Below, in pieces: positions 678 to 17,205 of a stretch of DNA of 17,205 nucleotides. Every line of letters starts with the position of its first letter. The first letter of the stretch is position 1. The translations under genes were made by a program, and so were the position numbers. The notes beneath the pieces were generated by a model. It saw nothing but the letters and a program-made list of their open reading frames with translations. It made no database searches and was not told the origin of the DNA. Where the stretch lies: the NCBI GenBank assembly GCA_017416665.1, contig JAFQBO010000292.1:1-17205 (forward strand). Reading direction: 5' to 3'. The DNA is from Oscillospiraceae bacterium (GTDB taxonomy: Bacteria > Bacillota > Clostridia > Oscillospirales > Ruminococcaceae).

Positions 678-1781
678 ATGGCTGATCTGATGAAAAAAAG
701 TTCGGGGACATATTCGGCACTTGCTGAAACTTATGGTGATTTTAAAGTTCCTGCGGTGCGTGTTAAAATCGGAGGTACTCAGTACAGCTCCGTTACTGCC
801 AAGGAAACCAAAAAAGGCAAAATGCTGTTGATTGAAAAAGTGGATACATACCTTTGTCATGATGAAGGAAGCTCTGTAAGTGTGGTTGTTGGTGATGCTT
901 ATGACCTTGAAGGAAGTAAATTCAGGGAAACTGTAAGTCTCGGAGATACAATGCAGGTTGAAGTGGGATATGGTTCTGTTTTTCATGAAATATTTTCAGG
1001 ATTTGTCGGAGAAATTCAGTTTGAATACTATGGCACGGATCAGCAGATAAGAATTACGGGCTTTGATGCCATATACCTTATGTCGCAGAATTTCAGTAGT
1101 AATTATTACACTGAAAAAAAGTATTCTGATATTATAAATGCAATTATTGGTAATTACAGTAATGTGCTGAAAAAAGGTACTATTGATTCATCAAATGAAC
1201 AACCGAGAGCATTTATGTCCTGTCAGGGAATGAGTGATTACAGGTATATATGTGACGTACTTTGTCCGCTTGCAGGAAAGGAATTCTACATTTTTGACGG
1301 AAAAGCCTATTTTCAGGCGATAGACAAGCGTGAAAAATCACAGTCGGTGTCGCTGAAACTTGGTCAGAGTCTTTTTGATTTCAGTATAACTTCGGCTTAT
1401 GCGAATTTTGAAATTCAGGTAAGCAACGCTGTTGGCACAGACCCGACAACGGTACTTCTCGGAAAATCTTCGGGAAAATCAGATTCAACGCAGAAAAGTG
1501 CTGTCTCATCGGCTCAGAAAAGGTTTTTGCAGATGAGATATGCTGAAGATTCAAACGGCGTAAAAGCAGCGGCAGAATATATTCTTAAAAAGAGTATTGC
1601 GGAGCGTCAGACCGCAAGAGGCGTGTGTGTGGGACTTCCGGAAATTATTCCGGGAAGATGCATTGTTATAAACGGTATTCAGAAAAGTTATGAAAGTAAA
1701 AAATTCTGGATTGATACAGTGCATCACAAAATAAATGAGACGGGTTTTGTTACAGAATTTACAGTGAAAGGGTGGTCATAA
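678..1781 (+). CDS. CIS hub protein, gpD/gp27-like (phage late control D family; N-terminal half of an Afp8/VgrG-type spike)
   Basis: This 367-aa protein resembles the phage late-control D/gp27 hub, which forms the trimeric ring carrying the needle. What can be seen: an N-terminal beta-rich region; FRETVSLGDTMQVEVGYG followed by IFSGFVGEIQ, the typical hub pattern of a defined unit vector followed by 'F.G.V..I'; ITGFDAIYLMSQ, matching the 'V.G.D....L' step; a helix YSDIINAIIGNYS; and a C-terminal domain with PEIIPGRCIVINGI. The start ATG has AAAGG at 666-670, seven bases upstream. The gene's TAA is directly followed by the ATG of the gpV-like gene, so the two are probably translationally coupled and together replace one fused Afp8/VgrG polypeptide. 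A serine/lysine-rich linker lies at about residues 263-280. Family assignment is confident; the exact trimer role is inferred from homologues. Confidence 0.85.
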   Translation: MADLMKKSSGTYSALAETYGDFKVPAVRVKIGGTQYSSVTAKETKKGKMLLIEKVDTYLCHDEGSSVSVVVGDAYDLEGSKFRETVSLGDTMQVEVGYGSVFHEIFSGFVGEIQFEYYGTDQQIRITGFDAIYLMSQNFSSNYYTEKKYSDIINAIIGNYSNVLKKGTIDSSNEQPRAFMSCQGMSDYRYICDVLCPLAGKEFYIFDGKAYFQAIDKREKSQSVSLKLGQSLFDFSITSAYANFEIQVSNAVGTDPTTVLLGKSSGKSDSTQKSAVSSAQKRFLQMRYAEDSNGVKAAAEYILKKSIAERQTARGVCVGLPEIIPGRCIVINGIQKSYESKKFWIDTVHHKINETGFVTEFTVKGWS

Positions 1782-2543
1782 ATGTTCGATATATCTGAAA
1801 ATCAGAGCAGTAATTTTGAATATAACATGGTAAATCAACCTTTTTGCTATGGTAAAATACTTCAGAATTACGACAAGGATCATCCGAATCAGGTAAAGGT
1901 ACAGCTAAGTGCTTTGTATGAAACAGGAAAAAATGAAGTCTGGGCAAATCTGTCGGTGCCGTATGGCGGTGAAGCGTATGGAATGCACTTTTTGCCGGAA
2001 GTCGGTGAACTGGTTCTGCTGGCTATGATTTCGGCTGAATCACCGGTTGTGATTTCGTCAGTTCTGGGAAAACAGGGCGTTCCGAAAAACTGTACTGATA
2101 ATTCTGAAAATGAAAAAAAGACAATCCGTACAAAAGCCGGGAATGAAATATATATTCAGGATACCAAGGATAAGGCTGTAATTCAGATGAAGACGGTTGG
2201 CGGGTATATGCTGGAAATTTCAGAGGAAGCGAAAAAAATAACCGTCACAGACAAGGATAAAAAGAATTCACTTGAAATTGATGCGGAAGGCGGAGCAGTA
2301 ACTGTCAAGGCAGACAAAAAGCTTGTGCTGTCTGTCGGCGGAAAAGATGTAATAAAGCTTGAATCAAGCGGTGCATCGATTGTAAGCTCGGCTGTTAAAA
2401 TCGAAGGCAGTCAGAAGATTGAACAGAAAGCAGGTCAGCTCAGTATTTCGGGTTCGACTGCTGAAATAAAGGCAGATGCAAATCTTACGGTAAAATCCGG
2501 AGGTGTTGCACAGATTAAGGGCAGTATGCTTAAACTTAACTGA
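1782..2543 (+). CDS. CIS spike protein, gpV/gp5 OB-fold plus beta-helix (C-terminal half of an Afp8/VgrG-type spike)
   Basis: This 253-aa protein begins with a gp5/VgrG OB-fold. The region from about residue 22 (CYGKILQNYDKDHPNQVKVQ) to FLPEVGELVLLAMI and SPVVISSVLG matches the classical 'G.V..n.D....rVkV...W....PyaG...G..flPEvGdeVlv' pattern, and KKTIRTKAGNEIYIQD matches the 'K.irTksGn.i.f.D' strand. From about residue 125 onwards the sequence is a run of alternating hydrophobic and charged short strands (LEIDAEGGAVTVKADKKLVL, then similar repeats to the end), as expected for a trimeric beta-helix needle. Translation starts immediately after the preceding TAA; AAAGGGTGG near the end of the upstream gene serves as the ribosome binding site. 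No C-terminal effector domain is attached, so the tip is probably supplied by the separate PAAR-like protein at 15210-15596. Confidence 0.87.
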   Translation: MFDISENQSSNFEYNMVNQPFCYGKILQNYDKDHPNQVKVQLSALYETGKNEVWANLSVPYGGEAYGMHFLPEVGELVLLAMISAESPVVISSVLGKQGVPKNCTDNSENEKKTIRTKAGNEIYIQDTKDKAVIQMKTVGGYMLEISEEAKKITVTDKDKKNSLEIDAEGGAVTVKADKKLVLSVGGKDVIKLESSGASIVSSAVKIEGSQKIEQKAGQLSISGSTAEIKADANLTVKSGGVAQIKGSMLKLN

Positions 2544-2551
2544 TAAGAGGT
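2544..2551 (+). promoter_or_regulatory. Ribosome binding site that fixes the gp25-like start at 2561
   Basis: AAGAGGTG lies between the TGA of the spike gene (2541-2543) and the gp25-like gene. GTG (2552) and TTG (2555) are in frame but fall within or almost on this site, whereas ATG at 2561 lies about ten bases downstream. The ATG is therefore preferred. Confidence 0.6.
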
Positions 2552-2560
2552 GTGTTGATT

Positions 2561-2968
2561 ATGGCACAGTCTGAAAAGGCTTTTCTCGGAACAGGCTGGA
2601 GATTTCCGGTAAGTGTTGATCGTCAGACGGGAAGTATAAGGAGCGCATCACAGGAAGAGGATATAGCACAGTCAATACGTATTATTCTGTCTACCCGAAA
2701 GGGCGAACGTGTGATGCTGCCTGAATTTGGGTGCGATCTTTACAAGTATGTGTTCAGCAATATGCAGACTGACGAAATAGCTGAAATACGACGTTGCGTG
2801 AAGGAGGCACTCCGTAAGTGGGAAACACGAATTATAGAAGTTGAAGTTGATGTTGATACATCGGGAATCGGTAAAGGAATGCTGATACTTGATATTCAGT
2901 ATCGTGTAAGGGCAACAAATACCCCGTTTAACCTTGTATTTCCGTACTATATTCAGGAAGGTGTGTAA
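2561..2968 (+). CDS. Baseplate wedge protein, gp25/GPW-like (Afp9-like)
   Basis: This 135-aa protein has the size and pattern of the GPW/gp25 family, which clips baseplate wedges to the first sheath ring. After an N-terminal segment FLGTGWRFPVSVD comes a helix EEDIAQSIRIILST and the signature KGERVMLPEFGCDLYKYVF at about residues 47-65, matching 'l.T..GeR.m.PeFG..L'. The C-terminal half alternates a helix (RRCVKEALRKW) with strands such as IIEVEVDVDT and LILDIQYRVRATNTPFNLVFP. ATG 2561 was chosen over upstream GTG/TTG because of the position of the ribosome binding site. It follows the spike gene by 17 bases. In Afp/PVC loci a PAAR-like tip gene normally comes next; here only 54 bases without a gene separate it from the J-like gene. 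Confidence 0.88.
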   Translation: MAQSEKAFLGTGWRFPVSVDRQTGSIRSASQEEDIAQSIRIILSTRKGERVMLPEFGCDLYKYVFSNMQTDEIAEIRRCVKEALRKWETRIIEVEVDVDTSGIGKGMLILDIQYRVRATNTPFNLVFPYYIQEGV

Positions 2969-3022
2969 TGATATACACAAATTCTTAAAAATAATATTCA
3001 TAAAGTAAAGGAGGAATAGAAG

Positions 3023-6019
3023 ATGCAGAGAATACCTGAGCTTGACAAACGCAGTGAAAATGAGCTTCGTGAACGTATGCTGGAGCTTGCGGAAAGCTAT
3101 ACACCTGAGTGGAAGCCGAATCCTGATGAGCCTGATATGGGTATGACACTTATTGAACTGTTTGCACAGATGCACTCGGGAACAGTAAGGCGTCTCAATC
3201 GTACAGTTGAAAAAAACCGTGTGGATTTCTGTCGTTTCATGGGTACATATCTGCGTTCATCTGAAACCTCCGCAGGATATGTAAAGGTTGGATTTTCGTC
3301 GGAACAGGTACAGGAAAATGTGATACTTCCTGAGGGGACTGTTCTCACAGCACAGATGCCTGAGGGTGAAGAAGAAAATTCCGGATTTACAACTCTTGAC
3401 GATGTTTGTGTTACATCTGCACATATTGAAAAAATAATTATGACCGATGGCAGTGCCGATCTCATAAGTACAGTTTATAACCGTGCTGATGACGGCGAAA
3501 ATCCTTCATTTGTTCTTTTTGGAAAGAAAACAGAAAATCAGAATTCACATGTTGTGGAAATTGGCTGTAAAAGCGGTCTTATGCATATTATAGGTGAGGG
3601 AATAATATGTCTGCATATAAAACAGCAGAAAAAAGAAGGCGAGGCGTATTTAGCCGAATATTTTGAACTTGCATATAAAAATGAAGAACTGAAAATAGAA
3701 TATGCTTCTGAAAACGGATGGGAGCCTTTTTCAGAGGTTTATTCTTCAAAAGATGCATTAATTTTGAAAAAGAATGCGGACAAGCCTGAATTTTTCATCA
3801 ATGAGGAAGACGAAAATCCTGCTGATAAAATCAGGTTTACTCTTAAAAAAATACGACCTGAGGCATCACTTGCATCAGATGGTGTTTATCTGAGTACGCA
3901 GGGCAGAGATATAAAGCCTGATGTTGTAATCACAAAATACGGCGTTGCGGAAGATGAATGGTTTTCGCCGTTCGGAGAAGTTCCTGTTCTGTTTGATGCT
4001 TTGTATATTGCCTCGGACGAGGTATTGTCAAAGGCAGGAGCTGTCGTTTCAATGCAGATTTCGGTATCTTTTCCGCCACCACCTGAAACAAAAGCTGAAA
4101 AGAAACCAAGCGGCAGCTGGAAGATGGTCATGAGAAAATCTGATCTGCATGAGGAAGAACTTATAGTTTCCTGGATTTCATCTGTTGCGTGGGAGTACTA
4201 TAATGGCAAAGGCTGGAAATCACTTCAGTGTCATCCGGAACTTCGAAAAACGTTTTCTCCTGTTGACGGCAAGAAAACCTACAGTCTTGAGTTCAGATGT
4301 CCTGATGATGCAGTACCAGTGCTTGTTGAAGCAGAAGAACACAGATATATCCGTGCGAGAATTGTTCAGATAGAAAATATGTATCGTCCGAATATCGTGT
4401 ATCATCTCCCGCTGACAGCACATATATTTTTTCGTTATGAATGTAATGAACCGATTAAGGCAGATTATGTAATTACCGAAAATCAGATGATACGGCATAC
4501 CTGCGATGCGGATAGTCAGTTTGTATTCTTTTCGCCTATGCAGCAGACTGAACCGACAGTTTATTTCGGACTTTCTTCACCGCTTAACGATGGACCTTAC
4601 AGAATTCTTACAGTTGTCGACAATAAGCACTCCGGCAGAATGCCTGCACTCCGATGGGAGTATATGACAGACAACGGCTGGAAACCGCTTAACATTTATG
4701 ATGATACAGGACAGTTTGAACGTACAGGCATTATGGTCATATTCGAAAACAGCGGTTTCAGAAAAACAGAACTGTTCGGTTATGAAAATTACTGGATAAG
4801 AGCTGTTGATGATGCTCATATATACAGACAGTCTAATACATGTCAGCGTCCGTATATTATGAGAATGGATTTTAACTGTACGGAAGTCAGAAACTGCTGG
4901 GATATGCCTCCGGTTTACTTCAATCTGCCTGCTGCTGAACCGAATTTTATCTGTCATCTTCCTGACAGAAATATAGCAGACGTACGGGTGTATGTCGATG
5001 AACTTGAACTTCACAGCAGTTCAGAGGCTGAAAAGATGCTCCGTATGGGTATGGCAGATCCTGAATACGATCAGTACGGAATGCTGCAGAGACTATGGGT
5101 GAGATGGACAGCTGTGGAACATTTCTGGTTCTCAGAGGCAGAAGACAGACATTATCGGATAGATAAGAATGAAGGTCTGATTTTCTTTGGTGATGGCGAA
5201 CGTGGTAAAATCCCATGCTGTGGCAAAGGAGATCACATAAGAATAAATTATTCTATCGGTGGCGGAAAAAGCGGTAATATATTATCCGGCACTGAATGGG
5301 GAAGTCGTAATGCACTCGGACTGATTACTGAAATTTCAAATCCACTCCCGTTTTTCGGTGGAAACGACATGGAATCACTTCACTCCGCTACTGAAAGAAC
5401 TGCATCGGAATTTCAGAATAACGGTCAGTGCGTTACAGTCGCCGACTACGAAAATATTGCTTTGCAGACAGACAGAAGTATACTTAAAGTGAAGTGCATA
5501 TCGGGATATAACGCAGATGGCGAACGTGAAGCAGGAAGTGTTACGCTTATCATAATGCTTTCGGATTTTTCAAAAGAATCGACCGGCTTTGAACAGATAT
5601 GTGACAAGCTGAGACGGGTGATAGATGATTGTCGTCCGGTTTCGCTTTCGCCGGAGAGCTTTTATATTATTCATCCAAGATATATCAGTATAAGTGTAAA
5701 CGCCACTATCAGAGTTACGGACAACAGCCGTATATTCCGTATAAAGGAACAGGTGCAGAAACGTATTGAGGAATTTTTACACCCTATAACCGGAAATTTT
5801 GACGGCAAGGGCTGGAGAATAGGAGAGTTTCCGCATCAGCGTCAGATAGAAAATGCAGTAAGAAGTGTAAGCGGGGTAGCTTACGTTGAAAATTTTGTAA
5901 TGAGAGCATTCTCAATACAGAATGACCATAAAAAAGAACTTGATCTTAATCATCTTACAGGACAGGCTTTCAGTCTTGCTGTAAGCGGTACACACGAAGT
6001 GCGTACGGAAAGAAATTAA
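3023..6019 (+). CDS. Baseplate J-like wedge protein (Afp11-like), 998 aa
   Basis: This is the first of two large J-like wedge proteins that form the arms around the hub. Near the N-terminus (residues 34-74) is the conserved block PDEPDMGMTLIELFAQM...RRLNRTVEKNRVDF, compare 'DpGiTLieLfAwl...yRlNrvpe'. The middle 600 residues are beta-rich. Around residues 718-748 the typical LIFFGDGERGKIPCCGKGD and INYSIGGGKSGNI elements appear ('FGDG..G..P..G', 'Y..GGG..GN'). At about 800-830 comes QCVTVADYENIALQTD, the usual entry to the C-terminal J domain, followed by IHPRYISISVNATIRV and a helix near RIKEQVQKRIEEFLHP. A strong AAAGGAGG at 3007-3014, eight bases before the ATG, supports the start. A near-homologous N-terminal block occurs in the next gene, so the two probably act as a wedge pair. 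Confidence 0.88.
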   Translation: MQRIPELDKRSENELRERMLELAESYTPEWKPNPDEPDMGMTLIELFAQMHSGTVRRLNRTVEKNRVDFCRFMGTYLRSSETSAGYVKVGFSSEQVQENVILPEGTVLTAQMPEGEEENSGFTTLDDVCVTSAHIEKIIMTDGSADLISTVYNRADDGENPSFVLFGKKTENQNSHVVEIGCKSGLMHIIGEGIICLHIKQQKKEGEAYLAEYFELAYKNEELKIEYASENGWEPFSEVYSSKDALILKKNADKPEFFINEEDENPADKIRFTLKKIRPEASLASDGVYLSTQGRDIKPDVVITKYGVAEDEWFSPFGEVPVLFDALYIASDEVLSKAGAVVSMQISVSFPPPPETKAEKKPSGSWKMVMRKSDLHEEELIVSWISSVAWEYYNGKGWKSLQCHPELRKTFSPVDGKKTYSLEFRCPDDAVPVLVEAEEHRYIRARIVQIENMYRPNIVYHLPLTAHIFFRYECNEPIKADYVITENQMIRHTCDADSQFVFFSPMQQTEPTVYFGLSSPLNDGPYRILTVVDNKHSGRMPALRWEYMTDNGWKPLNIYDDTGQFERTGIMVIFENSGFRKTELFGYENYWIRAVDDAHIYRQSNTCQRPYIMRMDFNCTEVRNCWDMPPVYFNLPAAEPNFICHLPDRNIADVRVYVDELELHSSSEAEKMLRMGMADPEYDQYGMLQRLWVRWTAVEHFWFSEAEDRHYRIDKNEGLIFFGDGERGKIPCCGKGDHIRINYSIGGGKSGNILSGTEWGSRNALGLITEISNPLPFFGGNDMESLHSATERTASEFQNNGQCVTVADYENIALQTDRSILKVKCISGYNADGEREAGSVTLIIMLSDFSKESTGFEQICDKLRRVIDDCRPVSLSPESFYIIHPRYISISVNATIRVTDNSRIFRIKEQVQKRIEEFLHPITGNFDGKGWRIGEFPHQRQIENAVRSVSGVAYVENFVMRAFSIQNDHKKELDLNHLTGQAFSLAVSGTHEVRTERN

Positions 6020-6041
6020 ATAAATACGGAGGTGAACGACA

Positions 6042-8060
6042 ATGCTCCCACAGATAAAGCTTGATGATGAAACATACAATGAAATACTTGAACAGGCAAA
6101 GCACAGGATTTCACTTATCTGTCCCGAATGGACAGACTATAACGAACATGATCCGGGCATAACTTTTCTTGAATTGCTTTCATGGCTTAAGGAAGCACAG
6201 CAGTATTATCTTAATCATCGTGAAAATTCCATGAAACATTACTTCCTTCAGTTGCTGGGAGCAGAATGTGCCGGACGCCTTCCGTCATACGGACGTATAT
6301 ACTTTAACTGTAGTGAACAGAAAAAAATTCTCTCGGAAACTCCTTTTTATTCTGGTGATATGTGCCTTACACTGACAGAAGATGCATATATAAACGGAGC
6401 AGAAGCAGAAAAAATGATTTCTGATGATGCAACGATAAATTGTCAGGAAATTTCAGCACTCAGCTGTATGGAGTGGTATCCTTTCGGGAAAAAGCCTGAG
6501 GCAGGCAAAACATTCACGGTTGTGCTTTCAAAGACTGTCCAGAATGCAGGACAGCTTTCGCTCTATCTGGATATTTTCAATAATTATCCTGTAAAGCGTA
6601 ATCCGATACAGGAGGGTTATCCGAAACTGGCTGAGTTTACAGCTCAGGCAGGAACAGAAAGGAAACTTCATAAATGCAGGATTTTAACAGATGAAACAGC
6701 AGCATTTACGGTATCTGGAAGAATTGTTGTGGAAATTCCGGAAAATGTCAGTGCAGACAGAATCAGCTTTACGCTTGAACAATGCTGTTATGATGTTCCG
6801 CCGCTGCTTACGGGTATATATACCGATGTTTTCAGAGTGTGTCAGAAAAGACAGACTTCATATCTGATATATACACAGACTGATCCCAAAAAGCCGTCAG
6901 AGAAAATTTTCAGGAAAAACTATGCTACGGAAAATCTGGAAATGCAGTTTCTGTATAACGATGATACAGGTTATATTATTTTTAAACCGGAAAATGTTAG
7001 TTATGAAAATGACTTTATCCGTGTAAAGGTGAATAAACAGATGGAGGATAAGACGGTACTGGCAGTCGTTTCCGAAAAGCCTGATCAGTATCTTCTGCAT
7101 CCGGGAAAGGGTACTGGTTTTCCTTATCAGGAATTTGATATTAACTGTACTGATATTACAGCGGAAAGCTTTTCACTTTTTATAAATGATGAATATGATA
7201 AGAAGTGGTACTTGTGGGAAAAAACCGACGACCTATTAAAAGCAAGCCATCTTGACAGAGTGTATTTCTTTGATGAAACAGCAGGTAAAATTTCGTTTGG
7301 TGACGGTATACACGGCAGAGTTCCCGACGGAGAGCTGTGGATTACCTCAATGTCACACACTCTTGCTGAAAAAGGATGTATAAAAAGTGGTGAGATTACG
7401 TCGTCACCTGTATGGGATAACATTTCCGATATCGGGTATTATGAGGATCTTACAGGCGGTGCATCACCTGAAACTCCTGAAGAATGCAGAAACCGTTATC
7501 AGAAAGCAAGGCGCATTCCGACAAGGGCGGTAACATGCAGGGATTATGAAACTCTTGTGAGGACAGCTCCCGGACTTATGATAAGGAACTGTCGTATTAC
7601 AGCAGGAGCGTACAAAAGCAACAGTGTTCATATAGCGGTTGAGCCGTATACAGGTGAGGAAAAAACGGCAGAAAACCGTATTTACCGTGAAATACTTCAG
7701 AGACATCTTGAAAAGGCACGTCTTATAGGTACACAGCTTCAGATATTTTTTCCGAAATATGCAGATATTGAAATATATGTTGTGCTGATGGTGGATTCCT
7801 ATTCTTCAAAGTCAGAAGAAGATATAAGACGGCATATAGAGGAACTTTTTGCAGATGAGTACCATTCATTCGGCAAACAGATTTTGTACAGCAGTATCTA
7901 TGCTGAAATCGACAGAATGCCACAGGTCGTGCAGATACAGGAGCTTGTTGTAAAGTGCAGTCAGGACGGTGTAAGAACAAACAGAAGCGGTGATATAATC
8001 CTGCCTGAAAACGGTCTGCCTTACCTGAAAACGCTTGAATTAAAATGTTCTGCCATGTAA
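6042..8060 (+). CDS. Second baseplate J-like wedge protein (Afp12-like), 672 aa
   Basis: The N-terminus carries the same block as the preceding J-like protein: ICPEWTDYNEHDPGITFLEL followed by LLSWLKEAQQYYLNHREN and a 'YFLQLLG' helix (about residues 27-75). The FGDG element (ISFGDGIHGRVPDGELWI) sits near residue 418, and the J-domain entry RIPTRAVTCRDYETLVRTAP near 490-508. After it come the strand/helix alternation KYADIEIYVVLMVDSYSS and DIRRHIEELFADEY. It is about 330 residues shorter than its neighbour, mostly in the middle domain. GGAGGTGA at 6028-6035 is an excellent ribosome binding site six bases before the ATG. Naming it Afp12-like rests on gene order and size more than on a signature unique to Afp12. 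Confidence 0.82.
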   Translation: MLPQIKLDDETYNEILEQAKHRISLICPEWTDYNEHDPGITFLELLSWLKEAQQYYLNHRENSMKHYFLQLLGAECAGRLPSYGRIYFNCSEQKKILSETPFYSGDMCLTLTEDAYINGAEAEKMISDDATINCQEISALSCMEWYPFGKKPEAGKTFTVVLSKTVQNAGQLSLYLDIFNNYPVKRNPIQEGYPKLAEFTAQAGTERKLHKCRILTDETAAFTVSGRIVVEIPENVSADRISFTLEQCCYDVPPLLTGIYTDVFRVCQKRQTSYLIYTQTDPKKPSEKIFRKNYATENLEMQFLYNDDTGYIIFKPENVSYENDFIRVKVNKQMEDKTVLAVVSEKPDQYLLHPGKGTGFPYQEFDINCTDITAESFSLFINDEYDKKWYLWEKTDDLLKASHLDRVYFFDETAGKISFGDGIHGRVPDGELWITSMSHTLAEKGCIKSGEITSSPVWDNISDIGYYEDLTGGASPETPEECRNRYQKARRIPTRAVTCRDYETLVRTAPGLMIRNCRITAGAYKSNSVHIAVEPYTGEEKTAENRIYREILQRHLEKARLIGTQLQIFFPKYADIEIYVVLMVDSYSSKSEEDIRRHIEELFADEYHSFGKQILYSSIYAEIDRMPQVVQIQELVVKCSQDGVRTNRSGDIILPENGLPYLKTLELKCSAM

Positions 8061-8074
8061 GGAGGAAATTTTAA

Positions 8075-9166
8075 ATGAAACTTCGTGCAAGATACTATTT
8101 GTGGAATAAAGAGTCCGACTTCAGAACAGGTACAAACCATAATATCAGATATGACGATTATGGTATGTATATGGACGATCCTTCACTTGGCTACGGCGTT
8201 TACTGTTCAAGAGTTGTTGACAGCGGTGAAACGGGGAAAATCTGGGGACGTGCGGAAATTCTCGGCGAATGGAGACAGAATACATCAGTTACAGTTTCAT
8301 TTTTTACTTCGGATAACATACAGTTCTCAGCATATGGCATCAGCAGAACTGCACAGGAATGGCTTTCTGATAACAAATACACTGCATCTGAAAAGGAAAT
8401 GATTTTTGAAAGCTGTAAAACAGCCGTTTTTTCAAATCGCCGTGATATTATGTTCGGAGGACTTAAAGGACGTTATATCTGGTTTATTATACGTTTTCAG
8501 GGAAGCAGTGATATTCCTCTTTCGGTAAAACAGCTCAGAATATGGCTTGACAATGAAAACTGGCTTTCGTATCTGCCTGAGGTTTATCAGTCTGATGAGG
8601 AATCAGCTGATTTTACAGCAAGATTTCTCAGTATTTTTCAGAATGTTTATGAAGAAATGAACGAAAAAATTACCCGTATGCCTGTTTATTATGATATTGA
8701 ATCGGCAGACCGTGATTTCCTTGAATGGCTTTCGGTATGGATCGGCATTAGAAACGGAGCATTATGGAGTGAACAACAGCTTCGAACATTACTGCCTGAG
8801 GCGGTTGAGCTGTTCAGAAAAACAGGAACGCCGGAAATGATAAGCCGTATGGTTGAATTGTACATAGGTCAGAAACCTATTATTATAGAAAATTACCTTA
8901 CATCAGATCCGTCAGAGGCAATACGGATTTTAAACAGTAAGGATTATCAAAAGGATTATTTTGGATTTACAGTTATTGTGCCGTCAGATGCGGTACACTC
9001 GGAAACACAGCATCAGGCTCTTTTACAGATAATACATCAGTGTAAGCCTTCACACATGAGAATGCAGCTGGTATTTGTAGATCCGTCATGGCTTGACGGA
9101 GCCGAAACGGTTCTTCCTCCTGATATTTGTCTTGATGGAAGATCGATACTTATGCAAAGGAGATGA
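8075..9166 (+). CDS. Phage tail protein I-like baseplate protein (P2 gpI / TIGR02242 type)
   Basis: This 363-aa protein has two parts. Residues 1-160 are beta-rich (repeated aromatic/charged strands, WGRAEILGEW, GRYIWFIIRFQGS) with no recognised signature. Residues about 163-345 fit the tail-protein-I domain: LSYLPEVYQSDEESADFTAR, then FLSIFQNVYEEMNEKITRMP, DFLEWLSVWIGI and LLPEAVELFRKTGTPEMISR, leading into MVELYIGQKPIIIENY. This matches the family pattern 'LP..yq....f..rFL.ifE...e.....i...p...dp..ap..fL.wLasWlg......w.e...r.li..a.ely...GT..gl...le'. In P2-like tails gpI helps attach fibres to the baseplate wedge. TAAGGAGG at 8058-8065 overlaps the stop of the previous gene and gives the start good support. 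It ends with TGA at 9164-9166. Confidence 0.82.
   Translation: MKLRARYYLWNKESDFRTGTNHNIRYDDYGMYMDDPSLGYGVYCSRVVDSGETGKIWGRAEILGEWRQNTSVTVSFFTSDNIQFSAYGISRTAQEWLSDNKYTASEKEMIFESCKTAVFSNRRDIMFGGLKGRYIWFIIRFQGSSDIPLSVKQLRIWLDNENWLSYLPEVYQSDEESADFTARFLSIFQNVYEEMNEKITRMPVYYDIESADRDFLEWLSVWIGIRNGALWSEQQLRTLLPEAVELFRKTGTPEMISRMVELYIGQKPIIIENYLTSDPSEAIRILNSKDYQKDYFGFTVIVPSDAVHSETQHQALLQIIHQCKPSHMRMQLVFVDPSWLDGAETVLPPDICLDGRSILMQRR
9156..9166 (+). promoter_or_regulatory. Ribosome binding site supporting a TTG start at 9174
   Basis: AAAGGAGATGA overlaps the TGA stop of the tail protein I gene and ends seven bases before an in-frame TTG at 9174. The in-frame ATGs further upstream (9093 and 9135) lie inside the preceding gene and have no comparable site. 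Confidence 0.6.
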
Positions 9167-9173
9167 ACAGACT

Positions 9174-10895
9174 TTGAAGGAATTACAATATTTTCCGTTT
9201 GTAAGAAACCGTTATTATTATGGAAAGTTTCTGTCAGCAGATACTCTTGATGCAGAACAGAAATACATGAACAATAAACGCCGTTTTTTAAATCGTTTTC
9301 TCCACGGAAACGGTGTTCTGTTCGGAATGGCAGTACTGAAGGTTGATGATGGTACAATAGCCATACAGCCTGGTGCAGCACTTGATTTTGCAGGGCGTGA
9401 AATTGTTATAGACAAACCGCTTCTTATTCCGCTTAAATCACTTGAAAAAGAGTCGTGTGAATCAGAGGCAACAGTGCGTTACCTCTGCATTGAATATGAT
9501 GAATACTACAAGGCAGCGGTTCATTCTGAATATTCAACGGAAAATGGAGATAACCGTGACAGCATATCGGAAAACTATCGTTTTTATATGACATCTTCTG
9601 AGCCGGAGCAGGCGTGCAGTATGGCAAAACGTTTTTACGAGCAGGCTGAAGTTGTCTATATGTCAGAGTCTGTCATGATAAAGCAGACACTGCCAGTTAT
9701 GGTACAGGCGGGAGAAAATGCGATGCTTCGTGTTACAGTTATGAGAAGAATACACGATTCTGATATAAATTTTTCATACAATCTCCGACTTACAGGTATG
9801 AAGTACGGCGATGACAATATTATGCAGATTTCGTTCGACAGCAGAACCCAGGCGATGGACGGAGACACGGCAGTACTCGAATTTCCGCTTCACATACTTC
9901 TTCATGCTGAGGGCGAAACAGGTTCGGTTGAAACGGTCAATGATTCCTTTAAAGGAGGAATAACATCACCGCCGACAGGATTTTCTGTATGTAAAATGAA
10001 CACCGAAATTGTTGTTGACAGACTTGAAGAACGTCTTATACAGAAATTTCGTGATGAAGGCATACAGATGATTTTACAGGATAATATAGTAAAACCTCCT
10101 ATTTGTCTTGCAAAAATAATGCTTGAAAACAACAGGGGCGTAATGAATATTGAAAGAATAATCAGAATGCCTTTTTATCAGTATATATACAGTGACCTTA
10201 CAGATGAACTGAGTTCCTTTTTCAATGACAACAACGAAAGTGTTCGTGAATATTCCGGTGAAAGCCGTGACAAAAGCGGTTATGAAATGGACAACATCGG
10301 AAATAAATTTTCGGTTTCATCTGGGGTTGAAGAAATACATATGCCTCTTGGCGGTAAAACAGGACAGTGTTTCTTCTCTGAACCGATTACACACGGACTC
10401 GGCATAAGCAGAGTTTCAGTAATTCTCGGACTGGATCAGCCGGGAAATACCACAATTTATGGTGATACAGAGGTATTTGACAAATCAGAAAAACACATTC
10501 TCAATGCAGCTCTTGCCGCAAAGGTAAGCGAAACGGAAGGAACGTTTGTAATAGGGTTGAAGCTTAAGGAACCGGTGGCGAAAACCTCTGTGAAGGTTCA
10601 CTGGACAGCAATTTATTCGCACAAATCAGACGTTACCGAATCTGCTCCTGCTATACAGATACTGCCGAGTCTGGCATCTGTTAGCGTTATGGAAAGTCTG
10701 ACGTTTGAAGTAAGATTTGAACATATGTCCAAACAGCAGATATACTGGAAAATTGCCGAAGGTGCAAGAGGCGGCGTAATAACAGATGGTGGTTACTATA
10801 CTGCACCTAATACGCCGGGCGTTTATCAGATTATTGCAACAGCGTCTGAAAGCGGAATACAGGCAACAGCGTTTGTAGCGGTAAGAGATTTGTAA
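9174..10895 (+). CDS. CIS-associated protein with N-terminal 'FxRNRYYYGKxL' motif and C-terminal bacterial Ig-like domain
   Basis: Starting at TTG 9174 the product has 573 aa. The N-terminus reads ELQYFPFVRNRYYYGKFLSA, followed by DAEQKYMNNKRRFLNRFLHG. I associate this 'RN.Y..GK.L....f..EQ.Y.n.KRR..NR.LHG.GV' block with proteins in CIS-type clusters, but I know no defined function for it. The middle is beta-rich, with KPPICLAKIMLENNR around 305-320. The last 85 residues look like a bacterial Ig-like fold: ILPSLASVSVMESLTFEV, then GGVITDGGYYTAPNTPGVYQ, IIATASESG and a final strand ATAFVAVRDL. Such domains often mediate surface or fibre contacts. Position after tail protein I, where Afp/PVC carry fibre-related genes, makes a peripheral baseplate or receptor-contact role plausible. 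The start rests on the ribosome binding site at 9156-9166 and on the motif beginning right after it; ATG 9135 would add 13 residues. Confidence 0.7.
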   Translation: MKELQYFPFVRNRYYYGKFLSADTLDAEQKYMNNKRRFLNRFLHGNGVLFGMAVLKVDDGTIAIQPGAALDFAGREIVIDKPLLIPLKSLEKESCESEATVRYLCIEYDEYYKAAVHSEYSTENGDNRDSISENYRFYMTSSEPEQACSMAKRFYEQAEVVYMSESVMIKQTLPVMVQAGENAMLRVTVMRRIHDSDINFSYNLRLTGMKYGDDNIMQISFDSRTQAMDGDTAVLEFPLHILLHAEGETGSVETVNDSFKGGITSPPTGFSVCKMNTEIVVDRLEERLIQKFRDEGIQMILQDNIVKPPICLAKIMLENNRGVMNIERIIRMPFYQYIYSDLTDELSSFFNDNNESVREYSGESRDKSGYEMDNIGNKFSVSSGVEEIHMPLGGKTGQCFFSEPITHGLGISRVSVILGLDQPGNTTIYGDTEVFDKSEKHILNAALAAKVSETEGTFVIGLKLKEPVAKTSVKVHWTAIYSHKSDVTESAPAIQILPSLASVSVMESLTFEVRFEHMSKQQIYWKIAEGARGGVITDGGYYTAPNTPGVYQIIATASESGIQATAFVAVRDL

Positions 10896-10951: not shown

Positions 10952-11836
10952 ATGATTATCCGTACTCAAAACCGTACACTTCATATTTTACAGACACTTG
11001 AAAAAACTGATTCATCAGTGACCTATGTATGCAGTGACATGAACGAAACTGAAAACAGACAGTATATTCTCAATGGTCTTTTAAATACGGAAGCGTATCA
11101 AATTCAGATTCCTCTCGTAATGGATTTACAGCAAAGTTCACGATTTACGGATTTTGCAGACTGCTTTTCTTCTGACGGAATTTTTTATCTTTTGTTTTTG
11201 TATTCGGACGGTTCGCCGTTTATGGATATTTGTGAATCATCAAGAAAACAAAGACTGGATGCCGTAAAAATGCTCATTGAAAAAATGGTCTTACAGGATA
11301 TGCCGTTTTTCATGCAGCAGGAAATACTTGCACCTGAAAAAATCTGTTTCGCAAAGGAAGATGTACTTGGCTTCAGATACATGATTTCGGGAAATCTCGC
11401 CTGTACCGAAACAGATATTCATACAATAGAACTTAGTCTGCTTGGAATTATCAAGAAAGTTCTTCACGACGAAATTGAAATGCGTTACTGTGATGAGCTT
11501 ATGACCTTCTGCGGAAATCTCAGTAACGGCGGTGTATATGCAGACTATACCGATATATATGCAGGCTTCAGCAGTGCATATCAGGCGTTTGAGGCGGAAC
11601 AGAAGGAGCTTGTTTCAAAGCGTTATCGTTTTCAGTTGTGGGAAACATTAAAAAAACATGGTAAAAAAATAAAAAGAGTTTTATTGCTGTTGATTATTGC
11701 GGCAGTGGCAGTAATTGCAGTTTATGAGATTTTAAAAGCACTTGAACCGGAGGCGGAAAGTGAACCTATTCAGCAGATAGGTGATCTGATAATCCGTGAA
11801 AATCAGCCGGCAACAGAGCCGGATACATCTGAATAA
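10952..11836 (+). CDS. Single-pass membrane protein with a pseudokinase-like N-terminal domain (CIS accessory)
   Basis: This 294-aa protein has a hydrophobic helix at about 242-262 (VLLLLIIAAVAVIAVYEIL) preceded by KKHGKKIKR. By the positive-inside rule the first 240 residues are cytoplasmic and the acidic 30-residue tail is outside. The N-terminal domain has a faint kinase-fold outline: LHILQTLEKTDSSVTYVCSD resembles the first strands of an N-lobe, FSSDGIFYLLFLYSDGSPF (about 72-90) resembles the hinge segment, and RLDAVKMLIEKMVL followed by ILAPEKICF (about 125-133) resembles helix E and the catalytic-loop position. Neither HRD nor DFG nor a clear ATP-binding lysine is visible, so it would be inactive. 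EssB/YukC of type VII secretion has the same layout, a cytoplasmic pseudokinase plus one membrane helix, but I see no direct sequence match. GGGAGG at 10940-10945, six bases before the ATG, supports the start. No known family is recognised; the kinase-like reading is inference. Confidence 0.6.
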   Translation: MIIRTQNRTLHILQTLEKTDSSVTYVCSDMNETENRQYILNGLLNTEAYQIQIPLVMDLQQSSRFTDFADCFSSDGIFYLLFLYSDGSPFMDICESSRKQRLDAVKMLIEKMVLQDMPFFMQQEILAPEKICFAKEDVLGFRYMISGNLACTETDIHTIELSLLGIIKKVLHDEIEMRYCDELMTFCGNLSNGGVYADYTDIYAGFSSAYQAFEAEQKELVSKRYRFQLWETLKKHGKKIKRVLLLLIIAAVAVIAVYEILKALEPEAESEPIQQIGDLIIRENQPATEPDTSE

Positions 11837-11842
11837 TATGTG

Positions 11843-12005
11843 AGAACTTGTACCAATAGGCTATAGCGCATATCTTTTCGGCAAATTTTAATAATAACTG
11901 CGTTAAAATTTCTTGCCTTACGCAAGTAAGCCTGCAGAATTTTGCCTTGTTCTTATTAAAATTATGCTCAAAAATCTATGCACAAATCCTATCGGTACAA
12001 GTTCT
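11843..12005. repeat. 163-bp near-perfect palindrome with 18-bp terminal inverted repeats (MITE-like or structured hairpin element)
   Basis: The left end AGAACTTGTACCAATAGG (11843-11860) and the right end CCTATCGGTACAAGTTCT (11988-12005) are reverse complements at 17 of 18 positions. Further inside, ATTTTAATAATAAC on the left pairs with GTTCTTATTAAAAT on the right, apart from one mismatch. The centre is CTTAC-GCAA-GTAAG (11917-11930), a stem with a GCAA (GNRA-type) loop lying within one base of the exact midpoint. The whole element can therefore fold into one long hairpin in either strand. It encodes no protein. I see no clear target-site duplication at its flanks. It fills almost the whole gap between two membrane-protein genes and ends 22 bases before the start codon of the MORN gene. 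Known non-autonomous mobile elements (MITEs) and repetitive extragenic palindromes have this architecture. Confidence 0.8.
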
Positions 12006-12027
12006 GAAATGGAAAGACGGTGAGGAA

Positions 12028-13860
12028 ATGTCCTTTTTTTCGTTTAAAAACTTAATACAGTACACATATTCAACGGCAAAGCAGATAATTGTAGCACCGT
12101 TTCAGAATCTTTACAGCCGTTTGCGTACACTTATGAGTGACAGGCATCTGTCATATAAAATAACGACAGATATTCGCCGTGAACTCGGAAAAAAATCAGA
12201 GCCAAAGGAACGCTCGGTTCGTCAGTACATAGCACTCGGACAGCACTATATTTCCAAAAAACTGATTATTATTGTACTTATTGCACTGATTATAGTGCCG
12301 TTTGTAACCATCAAGTGGATTTATCCCGCTGTACGTTCGGCATTTCTTACCTGGGAAGTTGAAATATATTCTGAAAAGCTTTCCGGTTACAGCGGTAAGG
12401 TTGAATTGTTGTCGTCTGAAAATGTAACACTTTATAAAGGCGATATGAAGGACGGCAGAATAACAGGTAACGGAACACTTTATGATTATTTCGGCAATAT
12501 AATGTATCATGGAGAATTTCTCAATGAACAGTATTCCGGAAAAGGTGAAACATACCATCAGAGTGGTAATGTGAAGTATTGCGGTGAATTTGAACTTAAT
12601 CAGTATCAGGGAAACGGTATACTTTATCATGATGATGGCACAAAAATATATGATGGTAATTTTTCAGCAGGACAATACGAGGGTGAAGGTACGCTTTATG
12701 CCTCTGATGGAACGGTGAAGTATCGTGGCAATTTTTCGGGTGGTCTTTATGAAGGCGAAGGAAAGCTTTTTCAGGACGGCGTTCTGATTTACAGTGGAAG
12801 CTTTTCAGCAGGTATGAGATGCGGTGAAGGTGTTGAATATCTCGGTAACGAAATAATATATCAGGGAACTTTTGAAAATGACGTTCTCAAGGACGGAACA
12901 GCAATTCTGTTCTATCCGGGAACTGATGACATACATTATCATGGAAGTATTCTCAACTATGTCTATGATGGTCAGGGCGTAATTTACACCAAAACAGGAA
13001 ATGTAATTTATTCGGGTGGATTTACTGAGGGTAAGTACAGCGGTGAAGGAACGCTTTATGACGAAAATACAGGTATAAAAAAATATGACGGAAGCTTTGT
13101 TGAGGGACTTTATGAAGGAAACGGTGTACTCTATGATGCAAACGGCAGTATGATTTACAATGGTGAATTTGCAGCCGGAAAGTACGAAGGTGCAGGAGTT
13201 CTTTACGACAAGGGACAGGTTATATATACAGGTGATTTCTCGGAAAGTCAGCCGACAGGTTCGGGTACTGCCAATGTTTATGATGAAACAGGAAAGCTTG
13301 TTTATTGTGGTGAAGTTACAGACGGACTCTATGAAGGAAAAGGCACACTGTATGACGAAAATGAACAGCTGAAATATTCAGGAAACTTTTCGGCAGGTGT
13401 TTATGAAGGCGAAGGAACTTACTACGAAAAAGGTAAAAAAGTATATACCGGAAATTTTGCAGCAGGTCTTTATGAGGGTGATGGAAAGCTCTACGACACT
13501 GAAACGGGTGCTTTGGTTTATCAGGGCGGATTTTCAGAAGGTATGTTTTCGGGCGAAGGAACGGCATATGATCCGGAAACACGGTATGTTCTCTATAAGG
13601 GTACATATCGTGAAGGTCAGTATGATGGTTCAGGTATTCTGTATGACAGCAAGACAGGAGCAAAAAGCTATGAAGGCGAATTCATACTCGGAAACATTTC
13701 GGGACACGGAATTCTATATAATATCGAAACAGGTGAAGTTACCGTTGAAGGTGAATTCCGTAACGGAAAGCTTTTGTCTGTAACTGAGGACAAGGAAAAA
13801 GCCGAAGAAAAAACGGAAAATGCATCAGAGCAGGCAACACAGGCAATTCAGACAACATAA
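12028..13860 (+). CDS. Membrane-anchored MORN-repeat protein (CIS accessory scaffold)
   Basis: The product has 610 aa from ATG 12028. Residues 1-78 are basic and probably cytoplasmic; a membrane helix lies at about 79-98 (LIIIVLIALIIVPFVTIKW); residues from about 135 to 585 are about 18 tandem MORN-type repeats of 23-26 aa with the pattern 'Y.G.F..G.YEGEGTLYD..G', and the tail is rich in Glu, Lys and Thr. MORN repeats form elongated beta-hairpin scaffolds that bind proteins or lipids. By the positive-inside rule the repeats would lie outside the membrane, between it and the cell wall. GGTGAGG at 12019-12025 precedes the ATG and decides it over an upstream in-frame ATG at 11947, which lies inside the palindrome. 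The stop overlaps the ribosome binding site of the DUF4255 gene, tying it to the CIS operon. Repeats 6-8 and 12 are the most divergent. Function in the CIS is unknown; a docking or scaffold role is inference. Confidence 0.85.
   Translation: MSFFSFKNLIQYTYSTAKQIIVAPFQNLYSRLRTLMSDRHLSYKITTDIRRELGKKSEPKERSVRQYIALGQHYISKKLIIIVLIALIIVPFVTIKWIYPAVRSAFLTWEVEIYSEKLSGYSGKVELLSSENVTLYKGDMKDGRITGNGTLYDYFGNIMYHGEFLNEQYSGKGETYHQSGNVKYCGEFELNQYQGNGILYHDDGTKIYDGNFSAGQYEGEGTLYASDGTVKYRGNFSGGLYEGEGKLFQDGVLIYSGSFSAGMRCGEGVEYLGNEIIYQGTFENDVLKDGTAILFYPGTDDIHYHGSILNYVYDGQGVIYTKTGNVIYSGGFTEGKYSGEGTLYDENTGIKKYDGSFVEGLYEGNGVLYDANGSMIYNGEFAAGKYEGAGVLYDKGQVIYTGDFSESQPTGSGTANVYDETGKLVYCGEVTDGLYEGKGTLYDENEQLKYSGNFSAGVYEGEGTYYEKGKKVYTGNFAAGLYEGDGKLYDTETGALVYQGGFSEGMFSGEGTAYDPETRYVLYKGTYREGQYDGSGILYDSKTGAKSYEGEFILGNISGHGILYNIETGEVTVEGEFRNGKLLSVTEDKEKAEEKTENASEQATQAIQTT
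12430..13782 (+). repeat. Tandem MORN-coding repeats, about 18 units of 69-78 bp
   Basis: The coding sequence repeats with a 69-78 bp period, each unit encoding a version of 'Y.G.F..G.Y.G.G.LY'. Units such as YRGNFSGGLYEGEGKLF and YTGNFAAGLYEGDGKLY are very close, while others are diverged, so the array seems old but partly homogenised. Such arrays can change copy number by recombination. Confidence 0.8.
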
Positions 13861-15209: not shown

Positions 15210-15596
15210 ATGGGATGTCTGGTATGTGCCGGTGCAACGCTTCAGTGTATATTCGGTATGGCACCATCAACACTGAATGTTTTACCCACAAGTCGTGTTA
15301 TGGCAGGAATGCCTGTTGCAACGATTATGGACAAAAATCCTTTTGTTAATATAATGCCGTTCGGGATGTGTTCAAATCCGGCAAATCCGACTGTTGCAAG
15401 TGCTACAGCAGCGGCACTCGGAGTGCTTACGCCAATGCCGTGTATACCTGTTATACCCGCACCATGGCTTCCGGGATCTCCGACAGTGCTTATCGGAAAT
15501 TATCCTGCATTAAATCAGAACTGTAAACTTATGTGTGCATATGGCGGACTGATTCAGATACAGTCGCCTGGTCAGACAACGGTAATGGTACCGTAA
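15210..15596 (+). CDS. DUF4280 PAAR-like spike-tip protein
   Basis: This 128-aa protein matches the DUF4280/PAAR-like pattern: it opens with MGCLVCAGATLQCIFGMAPS, continues with GMPVATIMDKNPFVNIMPFG and MCSNPANPTVASATAAA, and ends with PWLPGSPTVLIGNYPALNQN and a Gly/Gln-rich strand. Cysteines at 3, 6, 13, 54, 78, 105 and 109 could supply metal ligands or stabilise a cone. PAAR proteins sharpen the needle tip and often carry effectors; here there is no C-terminal extension, so any cargo would be bound non-covalently. It presumably caps the gpV-like needle encoded at 1782-2543, more than 12 kb upstream. In Afp/PVC the tip gene (Afp10) is between the gp25-like and J-like genes, so its position here is unusual. 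AAAGGAAGG at 15191-15199 precedes the ATG by ten bases. Confidence 0.85.
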   Translation: MGCLVCAGATLQCIFGMAPSTLNVLPTSRVMAGMPVATIMDKNPFVNIMPFGMCSNPANPTVASATAAALGVLTPMPCIPVIPAPWLPGSPTVLIGNYPALNQNCKLMCAYGGLIQIQSPGQTTVMVP

Positions 15597-15627: not shown

Positions 15628-17205
15628 ATGAAAAAATATCTGAAAGTACTTATTGTGCTGGTGGTTGTCGCAGTTCTCGGCGGTGCAGCATGGCTTACAA
15701 ATATTTTACTGTATTGTCCGTTTTTGCCTGAGGCAGTTTCGGCAGGATCGGAAAATTATGCAGTAGTACATAAGATTTCCGATAAATGGGTTGTTTCGGT
15801 TATAGACAAGTTTGGTGAGGAGGTTCAGTATACTGATTTTCCGTCAGATGATAAAAGTGAACAGATCAAACTTATATATTCCGATGAAATGTACTACTTG
15901 TGGAGATACAATCCGGAAACAGGCAGAGCTTTTGTGAATAATATTATATATGGAGAAAGCTCTGAAAAAGAAAACGAAGTAGTACTGAAAGCAAAAACAG
16001 GTGAAACATTTTTCGGAGTAAACGGTTCAGATGAAACAATTTCCGCTGTGGGTGTAATGGAACAGGATGGCATGGCTGAAATTACTGTTTATCTTGCAGG
16101 TATCACAGCACCTGAATTCAAAGTCTCCGAAACTTACTCGTTCAGAGGAGAATTTCTCATAAGGGACGCTTTATACTGTGCTGATGGTTCGGTCATGTTT
16201 CTGACGGCTGACGGCATTATTTACCGTATAACAAATCAGGATCGTATACCTCGTGTTTACTATAATTGTGCAGAGAATGTTCCTCAGTCGCTTATGCTTG
16301 ACGGCTCTGGAAAACTTTGTGTATGGAATTCGGATAACAGGGCGTTCCGTATAAATGAAGATAAAATCACAGAGCCTTGTCTTGAGGATATGATTTCAGA
16401 GCTTGTCTATAATGATGCTGTACATTCATTGAATGAATGTATATCAGTATCCGTTCAGAGTGATGACTTTTCAGCCATTATACATGAAAAGAATGATGGA
16501 ACACTCTGTCTTGAAACATACTGCAACGGGATGCTTTACACAAAATCAGAAACGGATTATGTTTCATGGTGGAAATATGTACTGGTGTATCTGTTGATTA
16601 TACTGGCAGTGATGATTATATCTGTTCTGCTTATGAGCGTACGTCTTCTTCTTCGTGATACGGTTAAAATGAAGACACGACTTCTGGTGCTTTGTGTAGC
16701 AGGTTTCTGTATCGTGGCATCGGTTGTTACGGTGTACACTGTTTCTGTTTTTACAGCTCAGAAAACCGAACAGAAATGGGAAAGACTTACAATCATGCTG
16801 AATCAGATGTCAATATTTCTTCATGCTGATGAACAGACTGATTATCAGTGGCTTATCAATGAAAAACAGGGTCTTACAGCAGAACAGCATCAGCTTGTGG
16901 AAAAGCTTGAAACGATGTCTGAAAATAAAACAGAAGGACAGTCCACATTTATTCTTTTTGTCAGAGATGAAAACGGAAAATATATTTCAGTATCCGGAAG
17001 TGAAGAATATATTAACAAGGCTCCGGAACTGATATACACACCATCGGCAGGATACAGGATTACAGGTAATTCTGACAGTGATGAAAATTTATTGTCGCTC
17101 AATTACCGCAAAGGCGGTGCATTATGGATGATGATGGTTCAGAAGCTGTACACTGTATCTGAACAGACGGAAGCAAGCGAGCCGTCCGCACTGCTTGTTA
17201 TGCAG
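15628..17205 (+). CDS. Multi-pass membrane protein with extracytoplasmic sensor-like domain (partial, runs off the window)
   Basis: The frame from ATG 15628 stays open to the last base (526 codons). The start has GGGAGGAA at 15616-15623 and lies 31 bases after the PAAR-like stop, so it belongs to the same operon. Helix 1 is at about 8-28 (LIVLVVVAVLGGAAWLTNIL). Residues 30-310 are extracytoplasmic and strand-rich with repeat-like segments (VVHKISDKWVVSVIDKFGEE, ADGSVMFLTADGIIYRITNQ), reminiscent of a beta-propeller. Helices 2 and 3 are at about 314-338 and 351-374 with a short basic loop, then a second outside region begins that includes FILFVRDENGKYISVSGSEE. This layout fits a membrane receptor whose signalling output (kinase, phosphatase or cyclase) would be C-terminal and beyond the window. 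No catalytic domain is visible, so the type of output is not known. Confidence 0.7.
   Translation, partial: MKKYLKVLIVLVVVAVLGGAAWLTNILLYCPFLPEAVSAGSENYAVVHKISDKWVVSVIDKFGEEVQYTDFPSDDKSEQIKLIYSDEMYYLWRYNPETGRAFVNNIIYGESSEKENEVVLKAKTGETFFGVNGSDETISAVGVMEQDGMAEITVYLAGITAPEFKVSETYSFRGEFLIRDALYCADGSVMFLTADGIIYRITNQDRIPRVYYNCAENVPQSLMLDGSGKLCVWNSDNRAFRINEDKITEPCLEDMISELVYNDAVHSLNECISVSVQSDDFSAIIHEKNDGTLCLETYCNGMLYTKSETDYVSWWKYVLVYLLIILAVMIISVLLMSVRLLLRDTVKMKTRLLVLCVAGFCIVASVVTVYTVSVFTAQKTEQKWERLTIMLNQMSIFLHADEQTDYQWLINEKQGLTAEQHQLVEKLETMSENKTEGQSTFILFVRDENGKYISVSGSEEYINKAPELIYTPSAGYRITGNSDSDENLLSLNYRKGGALWMMMVQKLYTVSEQTEASEPSALLVMQ

What the first reader, a model, noticed from the sequence alone, without database searches (positions are those of the whole stretch)
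10952..13860. Membrane-anchoring module embedded in a CIS operon suggests a cell-tethered, not released, injection machine in a Gram-positive
Two single-pass membrane proteins are placed between the baseplate genes and the DUF4255/PAAR genes, on the same strand with good ribosome binding sites, and a third membrane protein follows the PAAR gene. Released eCIS particles do not need such proteins; T6SS and other membrane-bound CIS do. No homologue of the T6SS membrane complex (TssJLM) is seen, so the anchor would be of a different kind.
Basis: inference. Interest (0 to 1): 0.7.

Follow-up and report, generated by a model that had tools for sequence, protein, structure and literature searches.

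The report
Pseudoenzyme membrane dock for injection machine
In many Clostridia, and in part in Bacilli, the genes for a phage-tail-like injection machine sit beside a recurring set of predicted membrane proteins (a predicted kinase-fold protein and a sensor with a cyclase-like domain, both apparently without their usual catalytic residues, and a MORN-repeat protein) that would likely hold the machine at the cell's own membrane and control when it fires.

Summary
Window 10952-11836 and 12028-13860 each encode a protein with one predicted membrane helix, between baseplate genes and Pvc16_N/DUF4280. The third membrane gene (15628, open at the contig end) is the front of a large four-helix sensor that probably continues on contig C248. 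They are: (1) a predicted kinase-fold protein without conserved catalytic residues; (2) a MORN-repeat protein; (3) an outer propeller-like sensor with HAMP, a class III cyclase-like domain without its metal-binding aspartates, and TPR. The first is found in 22 of 25 family genomes with Pvc16_N and 0 of 272 without; MORN and sensor genes also recur beside CIS genes in Bacilli. In two MAGs kinase-like domain and MORN protein form one ORF. TssL is absent from 25 of 25 genomes searched. 'Not released' is unproven: Bacillota CIS have fibre genes, some Bacillota CIS lack the module, and it might only regulate. Best reading: a signal-gated membrane dock that works like CisA or EssB/YukC. New variant of a known kind.

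The parts
8075..9166 (+). Tail_P2_I baseplate protein (said to resemble TssG in this CIS branch, PMC12923769)
   Evidence: Pfam PF09684, 36 bits over cut-off 20.6
9135..10895 (+). Baseplate-attached adaptor or fibre-like protein with CIS13-like N-terminus; candidate link between baseplate and membrane module
   Evidence: NCBIfam CIS13_fam E=1e-16 over residues 29-168, 61 bits, far below its curated cut-off of 370; homologues in 19 of 24 family loci; a weak collinear match to the tCIS crown protein All3314, E=0.095, not significant. An Ig-like C-terminus is my reading, with one weak Big_2 match. eBAP3/TssK-likeness is inference from PMC12923769
10952..11836 (+). Predicted kinase-fold pseudoenzyme with one C-terminal membrane helix (294 aa) and a short conserved IGT-type tail
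11838..12010 (.). MITE-like repeat between the two membrane genes
   Evidence: 23-nt inverted ends, 87% complementary; 24 matches in the own genome, itself and opposite-strand duplicates included
12028..13860 (+). MORN-repeat protein with one N-terminal membrane helix (610 aa from ATG 12028)
   Evidence: Pfam MORN E=7.7e-30; 16 repeat motifs by regular expression; fused to the kinase-like domain in L057 and L069
13872..14447 (+). Pvc16_N (DUF4255) CIS protein
   Evidence: Pfam PF14065, 86 bits over cut-off 27
15210..15596 (+). DUF4280 PAAR-like tip
   Evidence: Pfam PF14107, 125 bits over cut-off 26.3
15628..17205 (+). N-terminal part of the four-helix sensor; runs off the contig
   Evidence: A3 profile positions 1-488, E=2e-86 (this protein is itself a row of A3); probable continuation on C248, positions 560-895; ends compared

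Best explanation
The membrane genes encode a conserved, predicted pseudoenzyme module that likely docks the contractile injection system on the inner face of the cell's own membrane and would permit firing on an outside signal. Shown: the genes lie in the CIS operon; relatives track this CIS type in the genomes sampled; the columns aligned with kinase and cyclase catalytic residues are not conserved; kinase-like domain and MORN protein are one ORF in two genomes. Predicted: the kinase fold; the kinase-like domain faces the cytoplasm on one helix; the sensor has propeller-like and Cache-like regions outside and HAMP, cyclase-like domain and TPR inside. Inferred: the particle assembles in the cytoplasm, its baseplate (Tail_P2_I plus the 9135-10895 adaptor) binds the kinase-like or TPR face, and a ligand outside moves the HAMP and permits firing at the MORN-anchored site. 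In split loci a HAMP-SpoIIE protein stands beside a separate cyclase-like/TPR protein, which fits a signalling step. This would work like CisA in Streptomyces and EssB/YukC in type VII secretion; membership of neither is claimed.
Against: No interaction, localisation or firing data. The MORN protein's topology is not settled by charge (N-side more positive in only 22 of 50). The kinase-like gene was found in 0 of 25 Bacilli loci, so it cannot be the universal dock. L100 and L115 (Clostridiales Family XIII) have CIS genes without the module (L100 has only a weak HAMP-level match). Of 14 other phylum genomes with Pvc16_N, 7 lack the sensor; one of these, G503, has kinase-like and MORN genes, the other six show no module member above threshold in the stretches read. 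Fibre genes are reported from Bacillota CIS. HAMP, SpoIIE and TPR suit plain regulation as well. Two non-Bacillota loci have weak sensor-profile matches below my threshold (L124, 5e-8; L111, 2e-5). The window genome is 64% complete and no CIS sheath was found in it.
Confidence: 0.5

Rival explanations
1. The module is a stress or ligand sensor that controls expression or release of an otherwise free CIS and never touches the particle.
For: Sensor with HAMP and, in split loci, SpoIIE; BTAD regulator in the G113 cluster; a sensor paralogue and a sensor front fused to a multi-helix region on C248.
Against: In the family the kinase-like gene was found only with Pvc16_N and lies between structural genes; Pfam sees only MORN repeats in the MORN protein; the kinase-like/MORN fusion argues for a structural unit.
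Confidence: 0.27
2. A released extracellular CIS; the membrane proteins serve assembly, export or self-protection of the producer.
For: eBAP3 fibres reported from Bacillota and a Paenibacillus fibre that redirects PVC to human cells (PMC12923769); AAA ATPase, sheath and tube genes of eCIS type in the G113 cluster.
Against: Signalling-type domains exceed what self-protection needs (inference); the adaptor of the four Paenibacillus loci aligned lacks the C-terminal region of the others; two Firmicutes operons in PMC8213781 are tabled with no afp13 fibre (passages). Lysis genes were not searched for.
Confidence: 0.15
3. The membrane proteins are cargo or injected effectors of the CIS.
For: Position near the spike and PAAR-like genes; effectors are usually encoded in the operon, at its 3' end (PMC8213781, passage).
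Against: They recur as a set across Clostridia and partly Bacilli, while PMC8213781 describes most putative toxins as specific to certain loci; large multi-helix proteins are poor tube cargo (inference).
Confidence: 0.05

Closest known systems
CisA of the Streptomyces coelicolor CIS (PMC12237407)
   Same: Membrane protein encoded with a CIS in a Gram-positive; cytoplasmic N-terminus; required there for contraction; proposed sensor and checkpoint.
   Different: CisA has a largely unstructured cytoplasmic part and a solute-binding-like outer domain; here a folded kinase-like domain inside with about 33 residues after the helix, plus two further proteins.
EssB/YukC (type VIIb secretion) and TraF (pIP501 type IV secretion)
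   Same: Pseudokinase domain plus one membrane helix in a Gram-positive secretion apparatus; YukC contacts all T7SSb components (PMC9600267 abstract).
   Different: No YukC family among the Pfam hits of 19 members at E up to 1; EssB and TraF have a second soluble domain beyond the helix; the partner machine is a phage-tail-like CIS.
T6SS membrane complex TssJLM
   Same: Would anchor a contractile machine to the producer's membrane; the eBAP3/Tail_P2_I branch of CIS is reported to have TssG-like and TssK-like baseplate parts (PMC12923769, passage).
   Different: No TssL (DotU) in 25 of 25 genomes; the module proteins are of other folds.
Thylakoid-anchored CIS of cyanobacteria
   Same: A CIS held at the producer's own membrane; a weak, not significant match of the adaptor to its crown protein All3314 (E=0.095).
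   Different: Anchored by an extension of the baseplate (as told in PMC12237407 section 9), not by a separate set of membrane proteins.
Class III adenylyl/guanylyl cyclases with HAMP sensors
   Same: Fold of the cytoplasmic domain and HAMP before it.
   Different: No Asp at either metal position in 26 sequences.

Membership tests
eCIS-type contractile injection system | Tube adaptor, spike, gp25, Baseplate_J, Pvc16_N and PAAR-like genes together | tested here: met
   Pfam over cut-off for each of the six in the window
eCIS-type contractile injection system | Contractile sheath | tested here: inconclusive
   The only sheath match of the 64% complete genome lies among what I read as prophage genes; sheath, tubes and AAA ATPase are in the related G113 cluster
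Type VI secretion system | TssL/DotU membrane component | tested here: not met
   PF09850 in 0 of 25 genomes, chosen from the 39 with Pvc16_N; E. coli control rings
Type VI secretion system | TssM and TssJ | not tested
   Only DotU was searched
CisA | Bitopic protein with unstructured cytoplasmic part and solute-binding-like outer domain | tested here: not met
   Kinase-like protein: folded domain before the helix, about 33 residues after it
EssB/YukC | Pseudokinase domain followed by one membrane helix | tested here: met
   Predicted:
EssB/YukC | Sequence membership of Pfam YukC | tested here: not met
   Not among the Pfam hits of 19 members at E up to 1; that Pfam holds a YukC model is recalled
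EssB/YukC | EssB/YukC as close structural neighbour | tested here: inconclusive
   Not in the 50 rows shown by Foldseek or by VIA; that is no test of absence
Protein kinase | Kinase fold | tested here: met
Protein kinase | Catalytic Lys, HRD Asp, DFG Asp | tested here: not met
   Lys in 5 of 23 at the beta-3 column; Asp in at most 3 of 23 at columns 123-125 (HRD Asp); 0 of 23 at column 142 (DFG Asp); register by profile and by eye
Class III nucleotidyl cyclase | Fold and profile | tested here: met
Class III nucleotidyl cyclase | Two metal-binding Asp | tested here: not met
   0 of 26 at each, one gap at the first
MORN-repeat proteins | MORN repeats | tested here: met
   101 bits over cut-off 22.5
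Membrane-anchored CIS | Particle bound to the producer's membrane | not testable with these tools
   Needs tomography or biochemistry

The most novel reading that the evidence does not exclude
Clostridia and Bacilli evolved a Gram-positive counterpart of the T6SS membrane complex from dead enzymes: a pseudokinase hub, a MORN anchor and a pseudocyclase receptor form a signal-gated firing site for a T6SS-like baseplate, a further membrane-bound mode of contractile injection.
Probability: 0.35. Interest if true: 0.87.

Novelty: new variant of a known kind. Interest (0 to 1): 0.7.

Why it matters
How contractile machines of Gram-positive bacteria reach a membrane is open: CisA is the one such factor I met in the papers seen, and Roseiflexus is reported to lack close homologues of it (PMC12998442, passages). 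[quoted passage not shown] whether the loci here are of that subtype was not tested, and here CIS genes are plainly present. The module gives a handle: three genes, strains to work with (Paenibacillus, Cohnella, Brevibacillus, Intestinimonas), clear deletions to make. If right, it adds a third Gram-positive secretion machine, after T7SS and T4SS, that uses a membrane pseudokinase as hub.

Tried and rejected
Single-sequence search of the first membrane protein gave itself and one relative; the profile search five proteins, itself included: too diverged for word-based search, so neighbourhoods of Pvc16_N and DUF4280 were read instead. The MORN N-terminus found nothing. Pfam gave no family to the first protein, and single weak hits to relatives. 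The own-genome sheath search led to a gene among what look like prophage genes. SpoIIE was not found in the (incomplete) own genome. TssK was not among the PDB matches of the adaptor profile at E up to 10; TssK-likeness rests on PMC12923769. EssB is not in the structural rows shown, which is no evidence of absence. Effector and toxin readings were set aside (see rivals). Paper searches that could have shown this module; none of the listings shows it, but I read only passages, abstracts or named sections of eight papers, and the listing shows 40 of 2,924.

Full report
What is there. The window is a whole contig (C269) of a 1.83 Mb, 64% complete genome, G000. On one strand it carries CIS_tube, a gpD-like hub (below cut-off), spike, gp25, two Baseplate_J proteins, Tail_P2_I, a conserved protein at 9135-10895, the two membrane genes of the finding, Pvc16_N, a 247-residue protein, DUF4280 and the start of a large membrane protein. 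Hydropathy finds one helix in 10952-11836 and one in 12028-13860. Between them lies a repeat with 23-nt inverted ends, found again at 12 other places of the genome over 100 bases or more at 73-96% identity, plus four short pieces. The TTG start of the listed MORN ORF is inside it, so the gene probably starts at ATG 12028, where the ribosome binding site is poor.

The third membrane gene probably goes on elsewhere. C248 opens with an ORF matching positions 560-895 of the same family whose positions 1-488 are in the window, and the last 9 bases of the window equal the first 9 of C248 (read by eye, which found no overlap of 20 or more). C248 then encodes a second member of the family (848 aa), a single-helix 287-residue protein that I read as TPR-like, and a sensor front followed by many helices (993 aa), which I read as a transporter of MFS type; neither reading was searched.

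Pvc16_N was found in 25 of 297 genomes of the family. A profile of the first membrane protein finds 22 of 297 at E up to 1e-6, all 22 among those 25 and none among the 272 others. The profile holds the window's own protein and some of the same species under other names, so the 0 of 272 is the informative half. The sensor profile A8 finds 29 of 297: 22 of the 25 and 7 of the 272, five of these seven matching only the sensor/HAMP half. Missing for the kinase-like gene: G157, G287, G294; in G287 an ORF without helix stands in its place. Missing for the sensor: G064, G157, G240, although four-helix ORFs, rows of the first sensor alignment, lie next to the CIS in G064 and G240. Sensor without Pvc16_N: G555 and, weakly, G690. 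Of the seven with Pvc16_N but no sensor, G503 has kinase-like and MORN genes; the other six show no module member above threshold in the stretches read, with a 1e-4 sensor match in G600.

I sorted them by title into 32 Clostridia, 25 Bacilli and 23 others. With at least two CIS genes recognised there are 23 Clostridia (MORN-TM 19, plus 2 as fusion; sensor 20; kinase-like 19, and one more, L107, by eye) and 14 Bacilli (MORN-TM 13, sensor 14, kinase-like 0). Among the 23 others none has any of the three above my thresholds; three have a MORN protein without helix, and two weak sensor-profile matches (L124, L111) fall short. Only 1 of those 23 passed the two-gene CIS filter, so they are a weak control for CIS of other phyla. 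Over all loci the sensor is in 52 of 57 Bacillota and 0 of 23 others. Counter-examples are L100 and L115 (Clostridiales Family XIII), CIS genes without the module, and L095 (Tumebacillus) without MORN; L108 ends before the sensor would come.

Links between them. In Acetatifactor sp. HAN002 (L057) and Lachnospiraceae HAN044 (L069) one ORF runs kinase-like domain, membrane helix, MORN repeats. The two MAGs may be close relatives, so this may be one event. It ties the two genes of the finding together and puts the kinase-like domain on the side of the MORN protein's N-terminus. By charge the kinase-like domain is inside in 19 of 21 and the sensor's two large loops outside on average; for the MORN proteins charge alone is undecided, 22 of 50. 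MORN repeats outside is thus an inference from the fusion.

Mechanism. Best supported, at even odds: a membrane dock that gates firing. The operon order (baseplate, adaptor, membrane module), the tie of the kinase-like gene to the CIS, and the precedents of CisA (PMC12237407), YukC/EssB (PMC9600267) and TraF (PMC13037476) favour it. PMC12923769 (passage) reports that CIS with eBAP3 fibres rely on Tail_P2_I and have a baseplate resembling that of T6SS, with TssG-like and TssK-like parts; TssK is the part that meets the membrane complex in T6SS (recalled). The adaptor at 9135-10895 matches CIS13_fam at 1e-16, far below its curated cut-off, and is the natural link; that it is eBAP3-like is my inference. 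Its four Paenibacillus relatives aligned lack the C-terminal region of the others. Against: fibres are reported from Bacillota CIS and one redirected PVC to human cells, and a sensor module may only regulate.

Verdict on the finding.

Noticed in passing
window 11838-12010: MITE-like repeat with 23-nt inverted ends, at 12 other places of the genome over 100 bases or more at 73-96% identity, sitting in the CIS operon just upstream of the MORN gene.
   Followed up: partly
L170 (G000:C248) 1019-8791: Second sensor (848 aa), a single-helix 287-residue protein and a sensor front followed by many helices (993 aa) downstream of the CIS; sensor-profile ORFs with 12 or 13 helices also in L086, L155 and, weakly, L149.
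   Followed up: partly
L037, L038, L040, L046 (G087, G174, G160, G068): Genomes of only 0.7-0.9 Mb at 88-97% completeness keep the CIS and module, with two extra large proteins (about 700 and 900-1040 aa, most with an N-terminal helix) between MORN and Pvc16_N genes.
   Followed up: no
L051, L056, L060, L107: Split form of the sensor: a cyclase-like protein beside a HAMP-SpoIIE protein.
   Followed up: partly
L053, L097, L098: MORN proteins without helix (191-242 aa) near DUF4280 in Acidobacteria and Trinickia.
   Followed up: no
L100, L115: CIS loci of Clostridiales Family XIII with baseplate genes but without the module; a protein with 8 predicted helices stands downstream in L100.
   Followed up: no
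G000:C113 (L001): The only sheath match of the own genome lies among what look like prophage genes (read from the ORFs, not searched).
   Followed up: partly
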